NCBI GenBank assembly: GCA_958295905.1
Contig: OY282382.1
Coordinates: 868,001 to 932,000, forward strand
Direction: 5' to 3'
DNA length: 64,000 nt
Source of the DNA: an uncultured Vicinamibacterales bacterium
Lineage (GTDB): Bacteria; Acidobacteriota; Vicinamibacteria; Vicinamibacterales; UBA8438
This document shows, one piece after another, positions 5,512-50,273 of this stretch. The notes beneath the pieces were generated by a model, which had not been told where the DNA came from, searched no databases, and saw nothing but the letters and a program-made list of their open reading frames with translations. A program made the position numbers and the translations under genes. Within the stretch, counting starts at the first letter, position 1. Every line of letters starts with the position of its first letter.

Positions 5512-5543
5512 CACAGCACTAGGTGCCGTCCTCACGCCGAGGA

Positions 5544-5643
5544 GTCTGCGCCGTGGAACGATTTGGGCGCGGGTCGATCCTGTTATCGTAGCCGAAGCTC
5601 TTCAACTCCACTATATGGGGCCGATTTTTCCTACGGCGCAGAC
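5544..5643. repeat. MITE-like element, family C, copy 1
   Basis: A 100-bp segment bounded by perfect 11-bp inverted ends GTCTGCGCCGT and ACGGCGCAGAC. The copy at 49790-49893 shares both ends and the adjacent GAACG-TTTGGG and TTTCCT blocks but differs in the middle. Single ends occur near 49707 and 52768. Confidence 0.65.
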
Positions 5644-6029
5644 CCGCAGCCGGAATATCGTCGCCTGTGGCTCCGATTGCCGCCCAACCAACCCTCCAGG
5701 CACGGCGTTCTTGGCCCCCGGGCGCACTTCAGCGCCGGCGCCCCCGCCACTCCCGCGGGGCGGCGCAGGGTTCACCACGGGCGGTCACGCTTCGCGAACC
5801 CGGTGGCCAGCGGACGGCCTTACGCACGATACAGTACCGGCCCCGTTCGGCGACAGCTTTTTCTCTGAATTTTCCCACCTTTAACTCGTAGCTTCTACTC
5901 GTAGCTTCCGCCGGTCGGCCGCCGCGTCGGCACCGGGAGCCCGTGGCAAACCGGCCCCGCTGCGTTCGACCGGCATGCATCCGTGTCTGACGGCGTGCTC
6001 CCCCGCGCCTCGTCGCCCCGGGCGCCCCT

Positions 6030-8303
6030 TCAGCCGCCCCGCACGAGGCGCACGGGGGGGCCGTCGTCCCCGCGGGGCTCGACGGCGCCGATGATCACCG
6101 CCTGCGCGTATCCCCGGGCGAGGAGGTCGGCGAGACAGGCGTCGGCGCGATCCGCCGGCACTCCGGCGAGGAGACCGCCCGCCGTCTGCGGGTCGAACAG
6201 CAGGCGGTAGCGCGGATCGCCGGCGTGCTCCTCGGGGGCGTCCACCGCGCGCCGCAGCCGTACGTTGTGGGGATGGAGCGAACTCAGGAATCCGGCCCGG
6301 CTCGTCTCCAGCGCCCCGTCCAGCACCGGAATCGCGGGCAGATCGAGCCGGACGGCGACCTCCGACGCGCGCGTCATCTCCACGAGATGCCCCAGCAGCC
6401 CGAACCCCGTCACGTCGGTGCACGCCGTCGCCCCGTGTTGCCGCAGCGACGCCGCCGCGAGCCGGCTGGACTGGCGCATCGCCGCGATGGCGCCGTCGAT
6501 CCAGCGCCCCTTCGCCCGCATCCGCATCTCGGCCGCGAACAGGGTGCCGGTGCCGAGCCCCTTCGTGAGCACGAGCCGGTCGCCGGGACGCAGGCCGCCC
6601 TTGCGCAGAATCGCTCCGGCGTCGACCAGCCCCGTCAGCGACAGCCCCAGGCCGAGCTCGGCCCCTTCCGACGTGTGCCCGCCGACCAGCGCCGCCCCCG
6701 CCTCGTTGAGCACCCCGATCGCCCCGGCGAGGAGCTGCGCCAGGGTGTCCTCGACCTTCCGATCGAGCCCGAACGGCACCGTCGCCACCGCCAGCGCGGT
6801 CTGCGCCTCGGCGCCCATCGCGAAGATGTCGCCCAGGCAGTGGTTGGCGGTAATCTCGCCGAACACGAACGGGTCGTCCACGATGGCCCGGAAGGCGTCG
6901 ACGGTCCGCACGAGCACCTTGCCCGGCGGAACCCGCACCACCGCGGCGTCGTCCGGGGCGTCGAGGCCGATCAGCACGTCGTCCCGCCGCACCGGCGTCA
7001 ACCGGGCCAGCACGCGGTCCAGGGGCGTCGCCCCGACCTTCGACCCGCAGCCGCCGCAGCGCATCGCGGCCGTCGAGATCGCCTGGAGGTCCTCCGGCCC
7101 CGCCAGCCCCGCCGAGACCGCCGGGCCGGTCGGTCGGCGCATCTCCGGCAGGTCGGCGTACTTCGCCATGAACCGGCGGTCGATCCAGTCCTTCCAGCGC
7201 CACGCCAGGGCCCCTTCGAACGACCGGGTGCCGCGTCCCCCGACCGCATAGCGGTCGCCGGTGGACACCAGCGTGAGGAACCGGCGCTGGGGGTGGAACG
7301 GCCGGGGGCGGCGCCCGAGGAGGGCGCGGCGCAGGTTGCGCGCGAGGGGCGGGCCCTGGCGCACCGCGAACACGCCGGCCTTCTCGCGGGGATTACCGAC
7401 GACCGCGGCGGCGTCGCCGGCCGCGAACACGTCGGGGTGCGACGTCGAGCGCAGGGTGTCGTCGACCGCGATGAAGCCCTCGTCGTCGACCGCGAGACCG
7501 GCGTCGCGGGGCCAACGCGCGGCCCCCGCCTGCGTGACCCATAGAATCTCGTCGAGCCGCACCGCCGCGCCGTCGCCGCAGACCACCACGCCCCCGCGCA
7601 CCGCCGTCACCGGCTGTCCGAGGTGCAGGTGCGCGCCGCGCGCCCGCAGCACGCGCTCGAGCCGCTGCCGCACGCCGGCATTGTGGGTCGGCAGAATGGT
7701 CTCCTCCGCCCCGAACAGGTGCATCTCCGGGACCTGCCCGCCCCGGTCCGACCCCGCCAGCATCTGCCGCAGCGCGAACTGCATGGCGAGCAGCAGCTCG
7801 ACGCCCCCGGCGCCGGCCCCCACCACCCCGATCCGCATCGGAGCCTCGGCGGACAGGACGCGGGCGCGCAGCCGCGTCCACCGCTCGACGAAGCGGCCGA
7901 TGGGCTTGACGGGTATCACCGCCTCCGCCGCCCCCGGCACCCCGTGGAACGCGGGGGTGGAGCCGACGTTGATCGACACGATGTCGTAGGGGACCGGCGG
8001 GCGTCCCTCGCAGCGCACCTCGCGCCGGTCGAGGTCGAGCCCCACGGCCGGCTGATGATACAGCCGGGCGCCCGCGAACCGGGCCAGGCGGGCCAGGTCG
8101 ATGTGCACGTCGTCGAACGTGTAGTGCCCGGCCACGAGGCCCGGCAGCATCCCCGAGTACGGGGTGTGGACGTCGCGCGCGATCAGCGTGATGCGCACGC
8201 CGGGCTCGGGACGCATGCCGAACCGCCTGAGCACCGCGACATGGGTATGCCCGCCCCCGATCAGCACGAGGTCCTTGACGACGGGCACGGTGCGGTCGTT
8301 CAT
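6030..8303 (-). CDS. selD: NAD(P)/FAD-dependent oxidoreductase fused to selenide, water dikinase (SelD)
   Basis: This 757-residue fusion makes selenophosphate, the selenium donor for selenocysteine and selenouridine. Residues 1 to about 395 form a pyridine-nucleotide-disulfide/NDH-2-like flavoprotein: LVLIGGGHTHVAVL binds FAD, GVVGAGAGGVELLLAMQ is the second Rossmann motif, and HPDVFAAGDAA closes the flavin site. From about residue 414 comes a full SelD: MRCGGCGSKVG with the catalytic Cys (not Sec) before the lysine, GLDAPDDAAVV, NHCLGDIFAMGA, and the ATP/metal segment LVGGHTSEGAELGLGLSLTG. The fusion architecture is known in several phyla. The start ATG at 8301-8303 lies directly before the dinucleotide-binding motif; the longer frame adds low-complexity sequence. 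It supplies the pathway needed by the three candidate selenoprotein genes at 36.5, 50.0 and 62.4 kb. Confidence 0.95.
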   Translation of the reverse strand: MNDRTVPVVKDLVLIGGGHTHVAVLRRFGMRPEPGVRITLIARDVHTPYSGMLPGLVAGHYTFDDVHIDLARLARFAGARLYHQPAVGLDLDRREVRCEGRPPVPYDIVSINVGSTPAFHGVPGAAEAVIPVKPIGRFVERWTRLRARVLSAEAPMRIGVVGAGAGGVELLLAMQFALRQMLAGSDRGGQVPEMHLFGAEETILPTHNAGVRQRLERVLRARGAHLHLGQPVTAVRGGVVVCGDGAAVRLDEILWVTQAGAARWPRDAGLAVDDEGFIAVDDTLRSTSHPDVFAAGDAAAVVGNPREKAGVFAVRQGPPLARNLRRALLGRRPRPFHPQRRFLTLVSTGDRYAVGGRGTRSFEGALAWRWKDWIDRRFMAKYADLPEMRRPTGPAVSAGLAGPEDLQAISTAAMRCGGCGSKVGATPLDRVLARLTPVRRDDVLIGLDAPDDAAVVRVPPGKVLVRTVDAFRAIVDDPFVFGEITANHCLGDIFAMGAEAQTALAVATVPFGLDRKVEDTLAQLLAGAIGVLNEAGAALVGGHTSEGAELGLGLSLTGLVDAGAILRKGGLRPGDRLVLTKGLGTGTLFAAEMRMRAKGRWIDGAIAAMRQSSRLAAASLRQHGATACTDVTGFGLLGHLVEMTRASEVAVRLDLPAIPVLDGALETSRAGFLSSLHPHNVRLRRAVDAPEEHAGDPRYRLLFDPQTAGGLLAGVPADRADACLADLLARGYAQAVIIGAVEPRGDDGPPVRLVRGG

Positions 8304-22108: not shown

Positions 22109-22235
22109 GGGGCATCTGTAGAGTCGACGACTGGCGCGGTGGCGGTAGGCGGATGGGGGTAGCTGTTTCCGGCCGCTTTCGCCCGGTGCCGGTGCCTCAC
22201 TCCCCGCCGTGACTCCGTTTCCAGTCGCCGCTCAT

Positions 22236-22269
22236 CGAACCGGACATGCGGATTTCCCGCATCCGGCTC
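22236..22269 (-). ncRNA. Group II intron domain V
   Basis: On the minus strand the sequence is GAGCCGGATGCGG, then a GAAA tetraloop, then TCCGCATGTCCGGTTC. This is a canonical domain V: the AGC catalytic triad near the 5' side, a GNRA loop, and the two-helix layout with a bulge. A domain VI-like stem follows. Confidence 0.88.
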
Positions 22270-22279
22270 TCGGACGAGA

Positions 22280-26410: not shown

Positions 26411-26575
26411 CGCCGGGGAACGCACCGCAGCACGGCGGCGCTGGAACAGGCGATCACCGACTACCTCGCCATCTACAACGAGAACCCGAAGCCGTTCGTG
26501 TGGACCAAAACGGCCGACCAGATCCTGGAATCGCTGCAACATTACTGTAAACGAATTAACGATTCACTACACTAG
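26411..26575 (+). pseudogene. C-terminal remnant of an IS630-family transposase
   Basis: The last 54 residues (RRGTHRSTAALEQAITDYLA and IYNENPKPFVWTKTADQILE) match the conserved end of IS630/Tc1-type transposases, in which the final catalytic acidic residue lies just before this point. Nothing of the N-terminal 250-300 residues remains upstream. The stop codon TAG at 26573-26575 overlaps the CTAG that begins a family B repeat. Confidence 0.85.
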
Positions 26576-26710
26576 TGGTCCGTCACTCCATAAATTTCTG
26601 ACAGACAAACTTGAGTCGAACGATGTATTTTCTTCTGCATAGGACTCTTGCGGTTCGCGGTGAGTGCCCCGGAGACCCTGTTTTTAGTCGTGTCGATGCA
26701 CTGGCAGGGT
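26572..26710 (+). repeat. Dispersed intergenic repeat, family B, copy 1
   Basis: Starts CTAGTGGTCCGTCAC, then TCTGACAGAC, TATTTTCTTCTGCATAGGAC, and a GTTTTTAGTCGTG block near the end. It matches 49904-50040 (opposite strand, nearly full length) and part of 37098-37197. Confidence 0.75.
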
Positions 26711-47630: not shown

Positions 47631-48233
47631 TCAGCGTACCGCATCGCTCTCCAGGCGGTCGTCCGGATCGAACCGGTGGCGCGCCGGCATGACGACGTCG
47701 GGCAGGGTGGCCGCATTCATCACCGCTTCGTCGTCGATGATGCCGTTCTTGGCCAGGATCCAGGCGACGAGCCCGTACACCTCGTCCGGGCTCAACGTTC
47801 CCGGGGCATTACGGGGCATCGCGCGATAGATGTAGTCGTAGAGGGTCGTGGCGTACGGCCAGTAGTTTCCGACGGTCGGCGGTCGCGCCGCCGCATCGCG
47901 GCCGACGAGCGGGGCGGCGATGCCGCCTTCGCCCTCCCGGCCATGGCAGGAGCGGCAGGCGCCCCCCCAGACGCGCGCGCCCTCCGCGGCGCTGCCGCCG
48001 CCGAGCGGCAGTCCGGCGCCGTCCGGCATGACGTCGATGTCGAGGGCCGCGATCTCGTTCGCGGTCGCCGGGCGTCCCAGCCCCAGCGGGCCTGCCGCCT
48101 GGTCCGCCGGCTGCGCGGCCGCCGCCCAGGGGACGCCCGCCAGCAGGAGAGCCAGCCCGAAGCCGCGCGCCGGCGCGCCCGCTCCCGGACGCAGCGGCCG
48201 GGCGGGTCCGCGCGGGGGGGCGGTGCGGGTCAT
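47631..48233 (-). CDS. Monohaem cytochrome c, partner of sulfite dehydrogenase
   Basis: A 200-residue protein with signal peptide (cleavage near AAAAQPADQ), one haem site CRSCHGREGEGG and a distal Met ligand region in IYRAMPRNAPGTLSPDEVYG, followed by LVAWILAKNGIIDDEAV. This is typical of the SorB/SoxD-like electron acceptor of periplasmic sulfite dehydrogenases. Its start overlaps the stop of the SoxC-like gene (ATGA), so translation is coupled. It would carry electrons from sulfite oxidation to the respiratory chain. Confidence 0.9.
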   Translation of the reverse strand: MTRTAPPRGPARPLRPGAGAPARGFGLALLLAGVPWAAAAQPADQAAGPLGLGRPATANEIAALDIDVMPDGAGLPLGGGSAAEGARVWGGACRSCHGREGEGGIAAPLVGRDAAARPPTVGNYWPYATTLYDYIYRAMPRNAPGTLSPDEVYGLVAWILAKNGIIDDEAVMNAATLPDVVMPARHRFDPDDRLESDAVR

Positions 48234-49462
48234 GACTGCAGCCTTTCCGTCCCGAACAGGACCCGTCCGTCGGCGCCGATGGTCCACGAGGTGATCGGGT
48301 TCTGGTGATACCGGGTCCGGGGCCCGCGGGCGGCGACGAGCGCCTCCCAGGTCGGCTGCACGTAACCGGTCTCGTCGGTCGCGCGGCTCATGATCTCGGC
48401 CGCGCCGCCGTCCCAACGCCAGGGGGCCCGGAACCGCACGTGGGCCTTCGCCAGCACCGGCTCCTGCAGCTCCGCTTCCTGCCAGGTCGCGCCGCCGTCG
48501 GCGCTGACGTCGACCCGTGCGATCCGGCCCCGGCCGCTCCAGGCGAGCCCGCGGATCTCGTGCCAGCCCGGCTCGATCACGCGGGGCCAGGCGGGATCGG
48601 TGATGATGGAGCGCGCGTCCATGACGAAGCTGAACTGGCGCGAGCGGCTCCCGTCCCCGAGGGGATCGGTGTACTTCGACGTTTCTTCCCGGGTCATGAA
48701 CGGGCGGTCGGCGAGCTCGATGCGGCGGAGCCACTTGACGCTCGAGTTGCCTTCCCACCCCGGCAGCAGCAGCCGGGCGGGGTACCCGTTGCCGGGCATC
48801 AGGGCGTCGCCGTTCTGCGCGTAGACGATCATCGCGTCGTCGAACGCCTTCTCCATCGGGATGCTGCGGCTCATCACCGCGGCGTCCTGTCCCTCGGCGA
48901 GGAACCACGTGGCGTCGGCGTGCGCGCCGACCTCCCGGAGCACCGTCGACAGCAGGACCCCGGTCCACTCGGTCTGGCTCGTGAGCCCGCACACCATCTG
49001 CGGCAGGGTCTCCGGCCCGCCCCGCCGGAGGTTGCCCGAGCACTCGAGGAAGCAGATCCGCGACGTGGCCGGGAAACGCTTCAGATCGGCCAGCGTGAAG
49101 AAGGTCGGGCGGTCGACCAGCCCGTGGACGAGGAGCTCGTAGCGGTCCGGGTCGATCGCGGGCACCCCGCCGTGGTGCCGCTCGAAGTGCAGATCCGCGG
49201 GCGTGATGGTGCCCCGCAGATGCTGCAAGGGCGTGCGCGACGACGTCGAGCTGGGGTCGCGCCGCGGGGTCACGAACGGGGAGCGCTGCCCGACCTCGTT
49301 CGGACCGGGCCCGGGGCGCCGGGTGGTGTCGATGGCCTGCTGCGCGGCCGCCGGCACCGCCGCCGCGCCCACCGCGCCGGCCGTTCCCGCGAGCATTTCC
49401 CGGCGGGTCAGGCCGACCCGCCGCGGTCGAGAGGAGTCTACCGATCGTTCCCGGTGCGCCAT
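48230..49462 (-). CDS. soxC: SoxC/sulfite-oxidase-type molybdopterin oxidoreductase
   Basis: A 410-residue protein with a twin-arginine signal (GLTRREMLAGTAGAVGAAAV). The molybdopterin-binding domain shows HHGGVPAIDPDRYELLVHGL, the Mo-ligating Cys in RICFLECSGNLRRGG, and YPARLLLPGWEGNSSVKWLR. The C-terminal Mo-co dimerisation domain includes RIARVDVSADGGATWQEAEL. It should oxidise sulfite to sulfate in the periplasm with molybdopterin cofactor, passing electrons to the cytochrome c encoded next. The molybdate uptake genes at 29.8-32 kb would support it. Confidence 0.92.
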   Translation of the reverse strand: MAHRERSVDSSRPRRVGLTRREMLAGTAGAVGAAAVPAAAQQAIDTTRRPGPGPNEVGQRSPFVTPRRDPSSTSSRTPLQHLRGTITPADLHFERHHGGVPAIDPDRYELLVHGLVDRPTFFTLADLKRFPATSRICFLECSGNLRRGGPETLPQMVCGLTSQTEWTGVLLSTVLREVGAHADATWFLAEGQDAAVMSRSIPMEKAFDDAMIVYAQNGDALMPGNGYPARLLLPGWEGNSSVKWLRRIELADRPFMTREETSKYTDPLGDGSRSRQFSFVMDARSIITDPAWPRVIEPGWHEIRGLAWSGRGRIARVDVSADGGATWQEAELQEPVLAKAHVRFRAPWRWDGGAAEIMSRATDETGYVQPTWEALVAARGPRTRYHQNPITSWTIGADGRVLFGTERLQS

Positions 49463-49903
49463 GGCTCAGCTACCCCCTTTGTCCGCCGTCGATTCGAAGC
49501 GGGCCTCCGGCGAACCGGTCACAAGCCCGGCACCGTCTTCCGATATTATGACGCACTCCGACGGCAACCGGCCGGGTGGCGCGGGGAAGCTTGGAAGCCC
49601 GTGGCGATGCCGCGGGCTCCCAGGCCGGCGAACGCCGCTTGCGGCCGGCTCCGATTGCCGCCCGGACAAAGTGCGGGAGCCCTGCGGCGCAGGCTCCCGG
49701 CCAAGAGTCTGCGCCGTAGAACTTCGCGGATTCCTGGAGAGTTGGTTGGGCGGCAATCGGAGCCGCAAGCGACGATTTCCGGGCTGGGAGTCTGCGCCCC
49801 AGAACGGTTTGGGTCCGATCCGGCACAATATGCAGCGGTCAATCGCCGGCGCTTGCGCAACATAGGGTGGTCATAATTTCCTGCGGCGCAGACTTCTAGA
49901 CGG
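49463..49903. other. Repeat-rich upstream region of soxC
   Basis: 441 bp that should contain the soxC promoter. Repeats present are a GGCTCCGATTGCCGCCC segment (about 49655) and its inverted partner (about 49735-49790), a single GAGTCTGCGCCGTAGAAC end near 49705, and the family C element at 49790-49893. Confidence 0.5.
49790..49893. repeat. MITE-like element, family C, copy 2
   Basis: Ends GTCTGCGCC and the complementary GGCGCAGAC. Shares terminal blocks with 5544-5643 while the middle differs. 104 bp long. Confidence 0.6.
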
Positions 49904-50040
49904 CTAGTGCATCGCCACGACTAAAAACAGGGTCGCCGGGGCACTCACCTAGAACCGCAAGAGTCCTATACAGAAGAAAATACGTCATTCGGCCCAAGTC
50001 CGTCTGTCAGAAACTTATGACGTGACGGACCACTGGCTAG
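49904..50040 (-). repeat. Dispersed intergenic repeat, family B, copy 3
   Basis: Bounded on both sides by CTAG (49904-49907 and 50037-50040). On the minus strand it reads CCAGTGGTCCGTCACGTC, then TTTCTGACAGACGGACTTGG, and ends CGTGGCGATGCA. It matches 26572-26710 over its length. Its right CTAG contains the stop codon of the SelW-like gene. Confidence 0.75.
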
Positions 50041-50273
50041 GCGGATGGGACCGAGAGCGAGCGCAACGCCCCGATGACCTCCTCGGGCTCGGGAAACCGC
50101 TGCTCCTTCTGCTTCGAGAAGATCAGCTCACCGTCGGCCACCACGTCGAACTGTCCGCGGCCACCGGCCGTCACGTCGGCTTCGACACCGATCGCGTCCT
50201 TGATTGCGGCCGCCAGACTGGCGGCTCTGGGCAGGTAGTTTCAAACCTTGCAGTAACTGATTGACAGCTTCAT
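50037..50273 (-). CDS. Rdx/SelW-like selenoprotein (Sec11, CxxU, read through UGA)
   Basis: Read with UGA (minus strand, 50243-50241) as selenocysteine this is a 78-residue Rdx-family protein: MKLSISYCKV-Sec-NYLPRA, then ASLAAAIKDAIGVEADVTAG, GRGQFDVVADGELIFSKQKE and RFPEPEEVIGAL. All are signatures of the SelW/Rdx thioredoxin-like fold, in which the redox motif is CxxC or CxxU. The UGA sits exactly at the fourth position of that motif. SelW-like proteins are small cytoplasmic redox proteins of uncertain substrate. A hairpin 22 bases after the UGA fits a bacterial SECIS. The UGA so near the start makes the gene invisible to standard ORF calling. The TAG stop lies inside the CTAG end of a family B repeat. 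There is no obvious strong ribosome binding site. Confidence 0.88.
50209..50225 (-). promoter_or_regulatory. Bacterial SECIS candidate for the SelW-like gene
   Basis: On the minus strand GCCGCCA, loop GTC, TGGCGGC: a perfect 7-bp stem with a 3-base loop whose first base is G, the loop starting 23 bases after the last base of the UGA. Fits the known spacing and loop rule for bacterial SECIS elements. Confidence 0.68.

What the first reader, a model, noticed from the sequence alone, without database searches (positions are those of the whole stretch)
50037..50273. SelW/Rdx-like selenoprotein on the minus strand with a CxxU motif
Seen: MKLSISYCKV-UGA-NYLPRA and the rest of a complete 78-residue Rdx protein, absent from ORF predictions because the UGA is codon 11. 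A perfect 7-bp stem with a G-starting triloop lies at the right distance. Known: SelW-like CxxU proteins are a recognised selenoprotein family. Its TAG stop is formed by the CTAG end of a MITE-like repeat.
Basis: partly seen in the sequence, partly recalled or inferred. Interest (0 to 1): 0.87.

Follow-up and report, generated by a model that had tools for sequence, protein, structure and literature searches.

The report
Bacterial selenoprotein W gene beside soxC
This is a real but ordinary bacterial gene for a small selenium-containing redox protein (a selenoprotein W relative), which gene finders miss because its selenocysteine codon looks like a stop codon; the one less expected point is that in this bacterial family it nearly always sits just upstream of a sulfite dehydrogenase gene.

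Summary
On the minus strand, 50273-50037, an ATG opens a 78-codon frame with one in-frame TGA at codon 11 (50243-50241) and a TAG stop. Read through, it is an Rdx/SelW protein with a CxxU motif (Pfam Rdx 60.9 bits; predicted fold closest to solved SelW-like proteins). The genome encodes SelA, SelB, SelD and tRNA-Sec; SelD lies in this same window. All 27 homologues found in other genomes carry TGA at that codon. The stem-loop after the UGA fits the bacterial SECIS model, but alone it is weak evidence (about 11% of all TGA triplets here have one as good). Across 28 distinct sequences it is strong: 90% of cells paired, 20 cells changed on both sides against 4.2 in shuffles. The six Cys relatives examined lack it. 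So this is a selenoprotein, a new member of a long-known, abundant family. Beyond the finding: selW precedes a soxC-type sulfite dehydrogenase gene on the same strand in 19 of 20 informative genomes of its family; I found no report of this link. Function remains inferred.

The parts
50037..50273 (-). selW: SelW/Rdx-like selenoprotein, 78 residues, ATG start, TGA codon 11 read as Sec, TAG stop
   Evidence: homologues
50241..50243 (-). in-frame UGA (Sec) codon, second half of the CxxU motif (Cys8-Lys-Val-Sec11)
   Evidence: TGA at this codon in all 27 loci
50209..50225 (-). bSECIS-like stem-loop in the coding sequence: 7-bp stem, loop GUC at 50218-50216, loop begins 22 nt after the UGA
   Evidence: fold; covariation
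6030..8303 (-). SelD (selenophosphate synthetase) fused to an N-terminal pyridine nucleotide-disulfide oxidoreductase domain; part of the Sec machinery, in the same window
48230..49462 (-). SoxC-type sulfite dehydrogenase (molybdopterin enzyme with a Tat-like N-terminus), conserved downstream neighbour of selW
   Evidence: TIGR04555 482 bits, cut-off 420; Pfam; synteny
47631..48233 (-). c-type cytochrome (SoxD-like position); its ATG overlaps the soxC stop by 4 nt
   Evidence: Pfam; sequence; conserved in relatives
49904..50036 (-). MITE-like repeat (consensus ends CTAGTGG...GCACTAG), at least 40 copies in the genome, lying directly after the selW stop

Best explanation
The element is a functional gene for a small cytosolic SelW/Rdx-family selenoprotein. 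SelA, SelD and SelB with tRNA-Sec make Sec-tRNA and deliver it at the UGA of codon 11; the stem-loop 15 nt downstream in the same mRNA recruits SelB, as in other bacterial selenoprotein mRNAs. The product adopts a thioredoxin-like fold with Cys8 and Sec11 at the end of the first strand. It most likely acts as a thiol/selenol redox protein, cycling a Cys-Sec selenosulfide against a small thiol or a partner protein. Shown here by sequence: the frame, family, fold prediction, machinery, conserved UGA and covarying stem. Inferred: Sec insertion in the cell, redox cycling, and any substrate.
For: Rdx 60.9 bits against a cut-off of 22.6 and TIGR02174 CXXU_selWTH 54.3 against 34.2. SelA 542 bits; SelB with its C-terminal part, 332 bits with neighbours in the frame; SelD 290 bits; tRNA-Sec with anticodon TCA. 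All 27 homologues in genome contigs have TGA at codon 11. In the phylum sample 93 of 297 genomes have an Rdx match and 85 of these have a match with an in-frame TGA; 78 of those 85 also have a strong SelA, against 114 of 212 others. Conservation runs past the UGA to the stop: window against L011, codon-position differences after the UGA are 6/3/15 over 67 codons. bSECIS: 52 TGA sequences average 6.19 of 7 pairs against 4.56 under synonymous randomisation, and loop base 1 is G in 52 of 52; covariation score 0.380 against 0.155 in shuffles. Published bSECIS limits (loop 3-9 nt, stem 4-16 bp, G in the first two loop positions, spacing 16-37 nt, MFE at most -7.5; PMC13188914) are met, with a fold of -13 kcal/mol. 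Model pLDDT 88; best PDB matches are SelW-related proteins 2fa8, 3dex, 2ojl and 2p0g.
Against: No expression, selenium labelling or mass spectrometry. Seven genomes with a UGA form lack a strong SelA; four of them are incomplete, but G046, G140 and G193 are at least 91% complete. Only about one third of sampled phylum genomes have any Rdx, and a relative (G318) keeps only a broken remnant, so the gene is dispensable. No clear Shine-Dalgarno sequence was seen upstream of the ATG.
Confidence: 0.95

Rival explanations
1. selW works together with the downstream SoxC-type sulfite dehydrogenase in this family, for example as a cytosolic redox or sulfur-handling factor for the enzyme before Tat export or for its pathway. 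This adds to the main explanation rather than replacing it.
For: In the family of the window, 22 of 28 genomes have SelW. Of the 20 with enough downstream sequence, 19 have the soxC orthologue next on the same strand. soxC is followed by a c-type cytochrome, whose start overlaps the soxC stop here.
Against: soxC orthologues occur without selW upstream in G309, G298 and G206, and with a broken selW in G318. G300 has selW without that soxC next to it. UGA-Rdx genes elsewhere in the phylum are not near soxC. SelW has no export signal while SoxC looks Tat-exported. In the window 574 nt with repeats lie between the two genes.
Confidence: 0.25
2. The UGA is an ordinary stop or nonsense mutation and the rest is a decaying pseudogene.
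For: An in-frame TGA with no ordinary ORF; one relative does carry a broken copy.
Against: The same TGA is found across several phyla, with purifying selection after it and a covarying SECIS stem.
Confidence: 0.02
3. UGA is read as Trp or another residue through a changed genetic code or general read-through.
For: The frame is open if TGA codes for any residue.
Against: Dedicated tRNA-Sec, SelA, SelB and SelD are present. The residue aligns with Cys in Cys-type Rdx proteins. Other genes of the window end at TGA, for example soxC at 48232-48230.
Confidence: 0.02

Closest known systems
Bacterial SelW-like selenoproteins (PF10262, CxxU; Sargasso Sea and GOS selenoproteomes, PMC1088965 and PMC2398784; listed in PMC13188914)
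   Same: Same family, same CxxU motif, same in-frame UGA with a bacterial SECIS directly downstream; predominance of Sec over Cys forms was already reported (427 Sec against 56 Cys in GOS)
   Different: Host is a lineage matched to Vicinamibacterales/Acidobacteriota records; I found no paper that describes selenoproteins there. The neighbouring soxC gene is not mentioned in the papers found
SelT/SelW/SelH family models TIGR02174 (CXXU_selWTH) and NF041051 (SelTWH_Campy)
   Same: TIGR02174 above its cut-off; NF041051 83.2 bits, just under its cut-off of 88
   Different: Not a member of the Campylobacterota-type equivalog by that cut-off
Cys-type Rdx proteins of bacteria (for example 2fa8, 3dex, 2p0g) and the Acidobacteriota Cys forms L038-L043
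   Same: Same fold and aligned CxxC motif
   Different: Cys instead of Sec; a separate subfamily (CTQCRWLLRAAW...) with only 3-4 of the 7 stem pairs
Mammalian SelW (2npb) and MIEN1 (2ljk)
   Same: Same fold and CxxU or CxxC position
   Different: Only 22-31% identity in the structural alignment; eukaryotic SelW genes use a SECIS in the 3' UTR (PMC1088965)

Membership tests
SelW-like / Rdx family (PF10262, TIGR02174) | Profile match above the curated cut-off | tested here: met
   60.9 against 22.6 bits; 54.3 against 34.2 bits
SelW-like / Rdx family (PF10262, TIGR02174) | CxxC/CxxU motif at the end of the first strand of a thioredoxin-like fold | tested here: met
   Cys8-K-V-Sec11; strand 3-8, helix 14-28; best PDB matches are SelW-related proteins
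Bacterial selenoprotein | In-frame UGA conserved in homologues, with conserved sequence on both sides | tested here: met
Bacterial selenoprotein | bSECIS directly downstream: G in the first two loop positions, 16-37 nt spacing, 3-9 nt loop, 4-16 bp stem, MFE at most -7.5 kcal/mol | tested here: met
   Loop GUC, 22 nt, 7 bp, -13 kcal/mol; limits in PMC13188914; covariation
Bacterial selenoprotein | Host encodes SelA, SelB, SelD and tRNA-Sec | tested here: met
Bacterial selenoprotein | Sec is actually inserted in the protein | not testable with these tools
   Needs mass spectrometry or selenium labelling
NF041051 SelTWH_Campy equivalog | Score of at least 88 bits | tested here: not met
   83.2 bits
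SelW-like / Rdx family (PF10262, TIGR02174) | Redox activity with glutathione or a partner protein | not testable with these tools
   Inferred from the family only

The most novel reading that the evidence does not exclude
In this family of Vicinamibacterales-like bacteria the selenoprotein SelW has become a dedicated partner of a SoxCD-type sulfite dehydrogenase, encoded just upstream in one transcript, so that a function of bacterial SelW could be tested through sulfur oxidation.
Probability: 0.2. Interest if true: 0.6.

Novelty: new member of a known kind. Interest (0 to 1): 0.33.

Why it matters
It confirms a gene that standard gene calling misses, and shows that in the sampled genomes of this phylum nearly every Rdx gene (85 of 93 genomes with one) is a UGA form. 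The function of bacterial SelW is still unknown; a conserved gene neighbour in one family gives a concrete, testable lead.

Tried and rejected
1. The stem-loop as evidence on its own: rejected, about 11% of TGA triplets in the window have a comparable one, and four of the seven pairs are largely forced by the AAxLAA protein sequence. 2. TAG stop created by a MITE: rejected, same-genus relatives without the repeat have the same stop. 3. Cys/Sec exchange among close relatives: looked for and not found; even soxC loci without an intact selW showed no Cys version upstream. 5. SoxY search in the own genome found nothing, but the control genomes were also empty, so it says nothing about a complete Sox system. 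6. A first family scan of SelD together with a SelB stretch was given in a wrong frame and failed; SelD was repeated.

Full report
What is there. The minus strand from 50273 to 50037 reads ATG, nine codons, TGA, 67 codons, TAG. No ordinary ORF covers it. With the TGA read as a residue it is a 78-residue protein that matches Pfam Rdx at 60.9 bits (cut-off 22.6) and NCBIfam TIGR02174 CXXU_selWTH at 54.3 bits (cut-off 34.2). Searching the whole genome with Rdx gives this one place, with one TGA inside.

Decoding machinery. The genome holds SelA (542 bits), SelB (303 bits, or 332 with its C-terminal part in the same frame), SelD (290 bits) and one tRNA-Sec above the Rfam cut-off (63 bits) with anticodon TCA. 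SelD lies in this window at 6030-8303 (-), fused to a pyridine nucleotide-disulfide oxidoreductase domain (TIGR03169 493 bits and TIGR00476 287 bits, both above cut-off).

Homologues. All 27 related loci in the public genome contigs have TGA at the same codon; their records are labelled Acidobacteria/Vicinamibacteria, Planctomycetota, Chloroflexi-type, Actinomycetota and others. In a sample of 297 genomes of the window's phylum, 93 have an Rdx match and 85 of those have an in-frame TGA. Six full-length forms without TGA have CxxC and form a clearly different subfamily. UGA-Rdx and a strong SelA go together: 78 of 85 UGA-Rdx genomes against 114 of 212 others, Fisher p = 4e-11 (handles were transcribed by hand, species are not independent). 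Seven exceptions remain; four are below 80% complete, three are not. The conservation continues to the end of the frame: against the same-genus homologue L011, differences after the UGA fall 6/3/15 on codon positions 1/2/3.

The stem-loop. The stem runs from 50225 to 50209 with loop GUC; the loop begins 22 nt after the UGA, and the 26-nt piece folds at -13 kcal/mol. This satisfies the published bacterial SECIS limits (PMC13188914). Alone it is weak: 135 of 1200 TGA triplets in the window are followed by such a stem. The comparison is decisive: 52 UGA sequences (some of them near-identical) average 6.19 pairs against 4.56 under synonymous codon randomisation, 20 have a full stem with a G-first loop against 2.1 expected, and the loop starts with G in all 52; the six Cys forms have 3-4 pairs. 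On 28 distinct sequences 90.3% of cells pair (shuffled 77.5%), with 20 cells changed on both sides (shuffled 4.2) and a covariation score of 0.380 (shuffled 0.155; slid versions at most 0.127). Some lineages use GCGGCGA-GUC-UCGCCGC where this one uses GCCGCCA-GUC-UGGCGGC, a double exchange at synonymous positions.

Fold. AlphaFold2 with 24 aligned sequences gives pLDDT 88 and pTM 0.72. The best solved structures are bacterial SelW-related proteins (2fa8, 3dex, 2ojl, 2p0g, 2obk, 2oka), then MIEN1 and mouse SelW. Sec was modelled as Cys.

The repeat behind the stop. A roughly 130-nt repeat begins right after the TAG; it has at least 40 copies in the genome and ends in CTAG-like termini. The same-genus homologues L011 and L012 have GCCTAG at the same place without the repeat, so the stop is older than the insertion; whether its CTAG served as the insertion target is a guess.

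Gene neighbourhood. Downstream on the same strand lies a SoxC-type sulfite dehydrogenase (48230-49462; TIGR04555 482 bits, cut-off 420), then a c-type cytochrome whose ATG overlaps the soxC stop. In the window's family, 22 of 28 genomes have SelW. Two of those contigs end too soon. Of the other 20, 19 have the soxC orthologue next on the same strand (18, one more); G300 does not. soxC occurs without selW in G309, G298 and G206, and G318 has a broken selW remnant before soxC. Outside the family the link is absent in the 18 or so phylum loci checked (L110 was cut short at its contig end). A text search found no paper with both SelW and soxC. Synteny is shown; a shared transcript and a shared function are inferred. 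SelW has no export signal and SoxC appears Tat-exported, so a direct contact in the periplasm is unlikely.

Place in what is known. SelW-like selenoproteins were the most abundant family in the Sargasso Sea and GOS data, a shortage of Cys homologues in Sec-using bacteria was noted in 2006 (PMC1794560), and the family is listed in the 2026 review with the same Pfam domain and motif. This gene is therefore a new member of a known kind, not a new kind.

What is shown and what is inferred. Shown by computation: frame, family, machinery, conserved UGA, covarying stem, synteny. Inferred: Sec insertion in the cell, redox function, any role in sulfur metabolism.

Noticed in passing
window 47631-50273 (-): selW, soxC and a c-type cytochrome form a conserved gene order in the family (19 of 20 informative genomes for selW-soxC).
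   Followed up: yes
window 6030-8303 (-): SelD is fused to an N-terminal oxidoreductase domain; it scores above the cut-off for SelD, while TIGR04369 fusion_not_SelD stays below its own cut-off (454.6 against 700).
   Followed up: partly
window 49904-50036 (-) and 26574-26705 (+): MITE-like repeat with at least 40 copies in the genome, two in this window.
   Followed up: partly
window 49600-49903: A second repeat family with GGCGCAGACT / AGTCTGCGCC arms lies next to the first; similar sequence also occurs near 5540-5720 and downstream of selW in L011 and L012.
   Followed up: no
window 22139-22271 (-): Rfam group II intron match at 40.8 bits, just above its gathering score of 40.
   Followed up: no
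L157 (genome G318), just upstream of soxC: Broken remnant of selW (C-terminal half in two frames), a loss event within the family.
   Followed up: partly
L109 (genome G237): In this genome of the same order the UGA-Rdx gene lies about 4 kb from selA on one contig.
   Followed up: no
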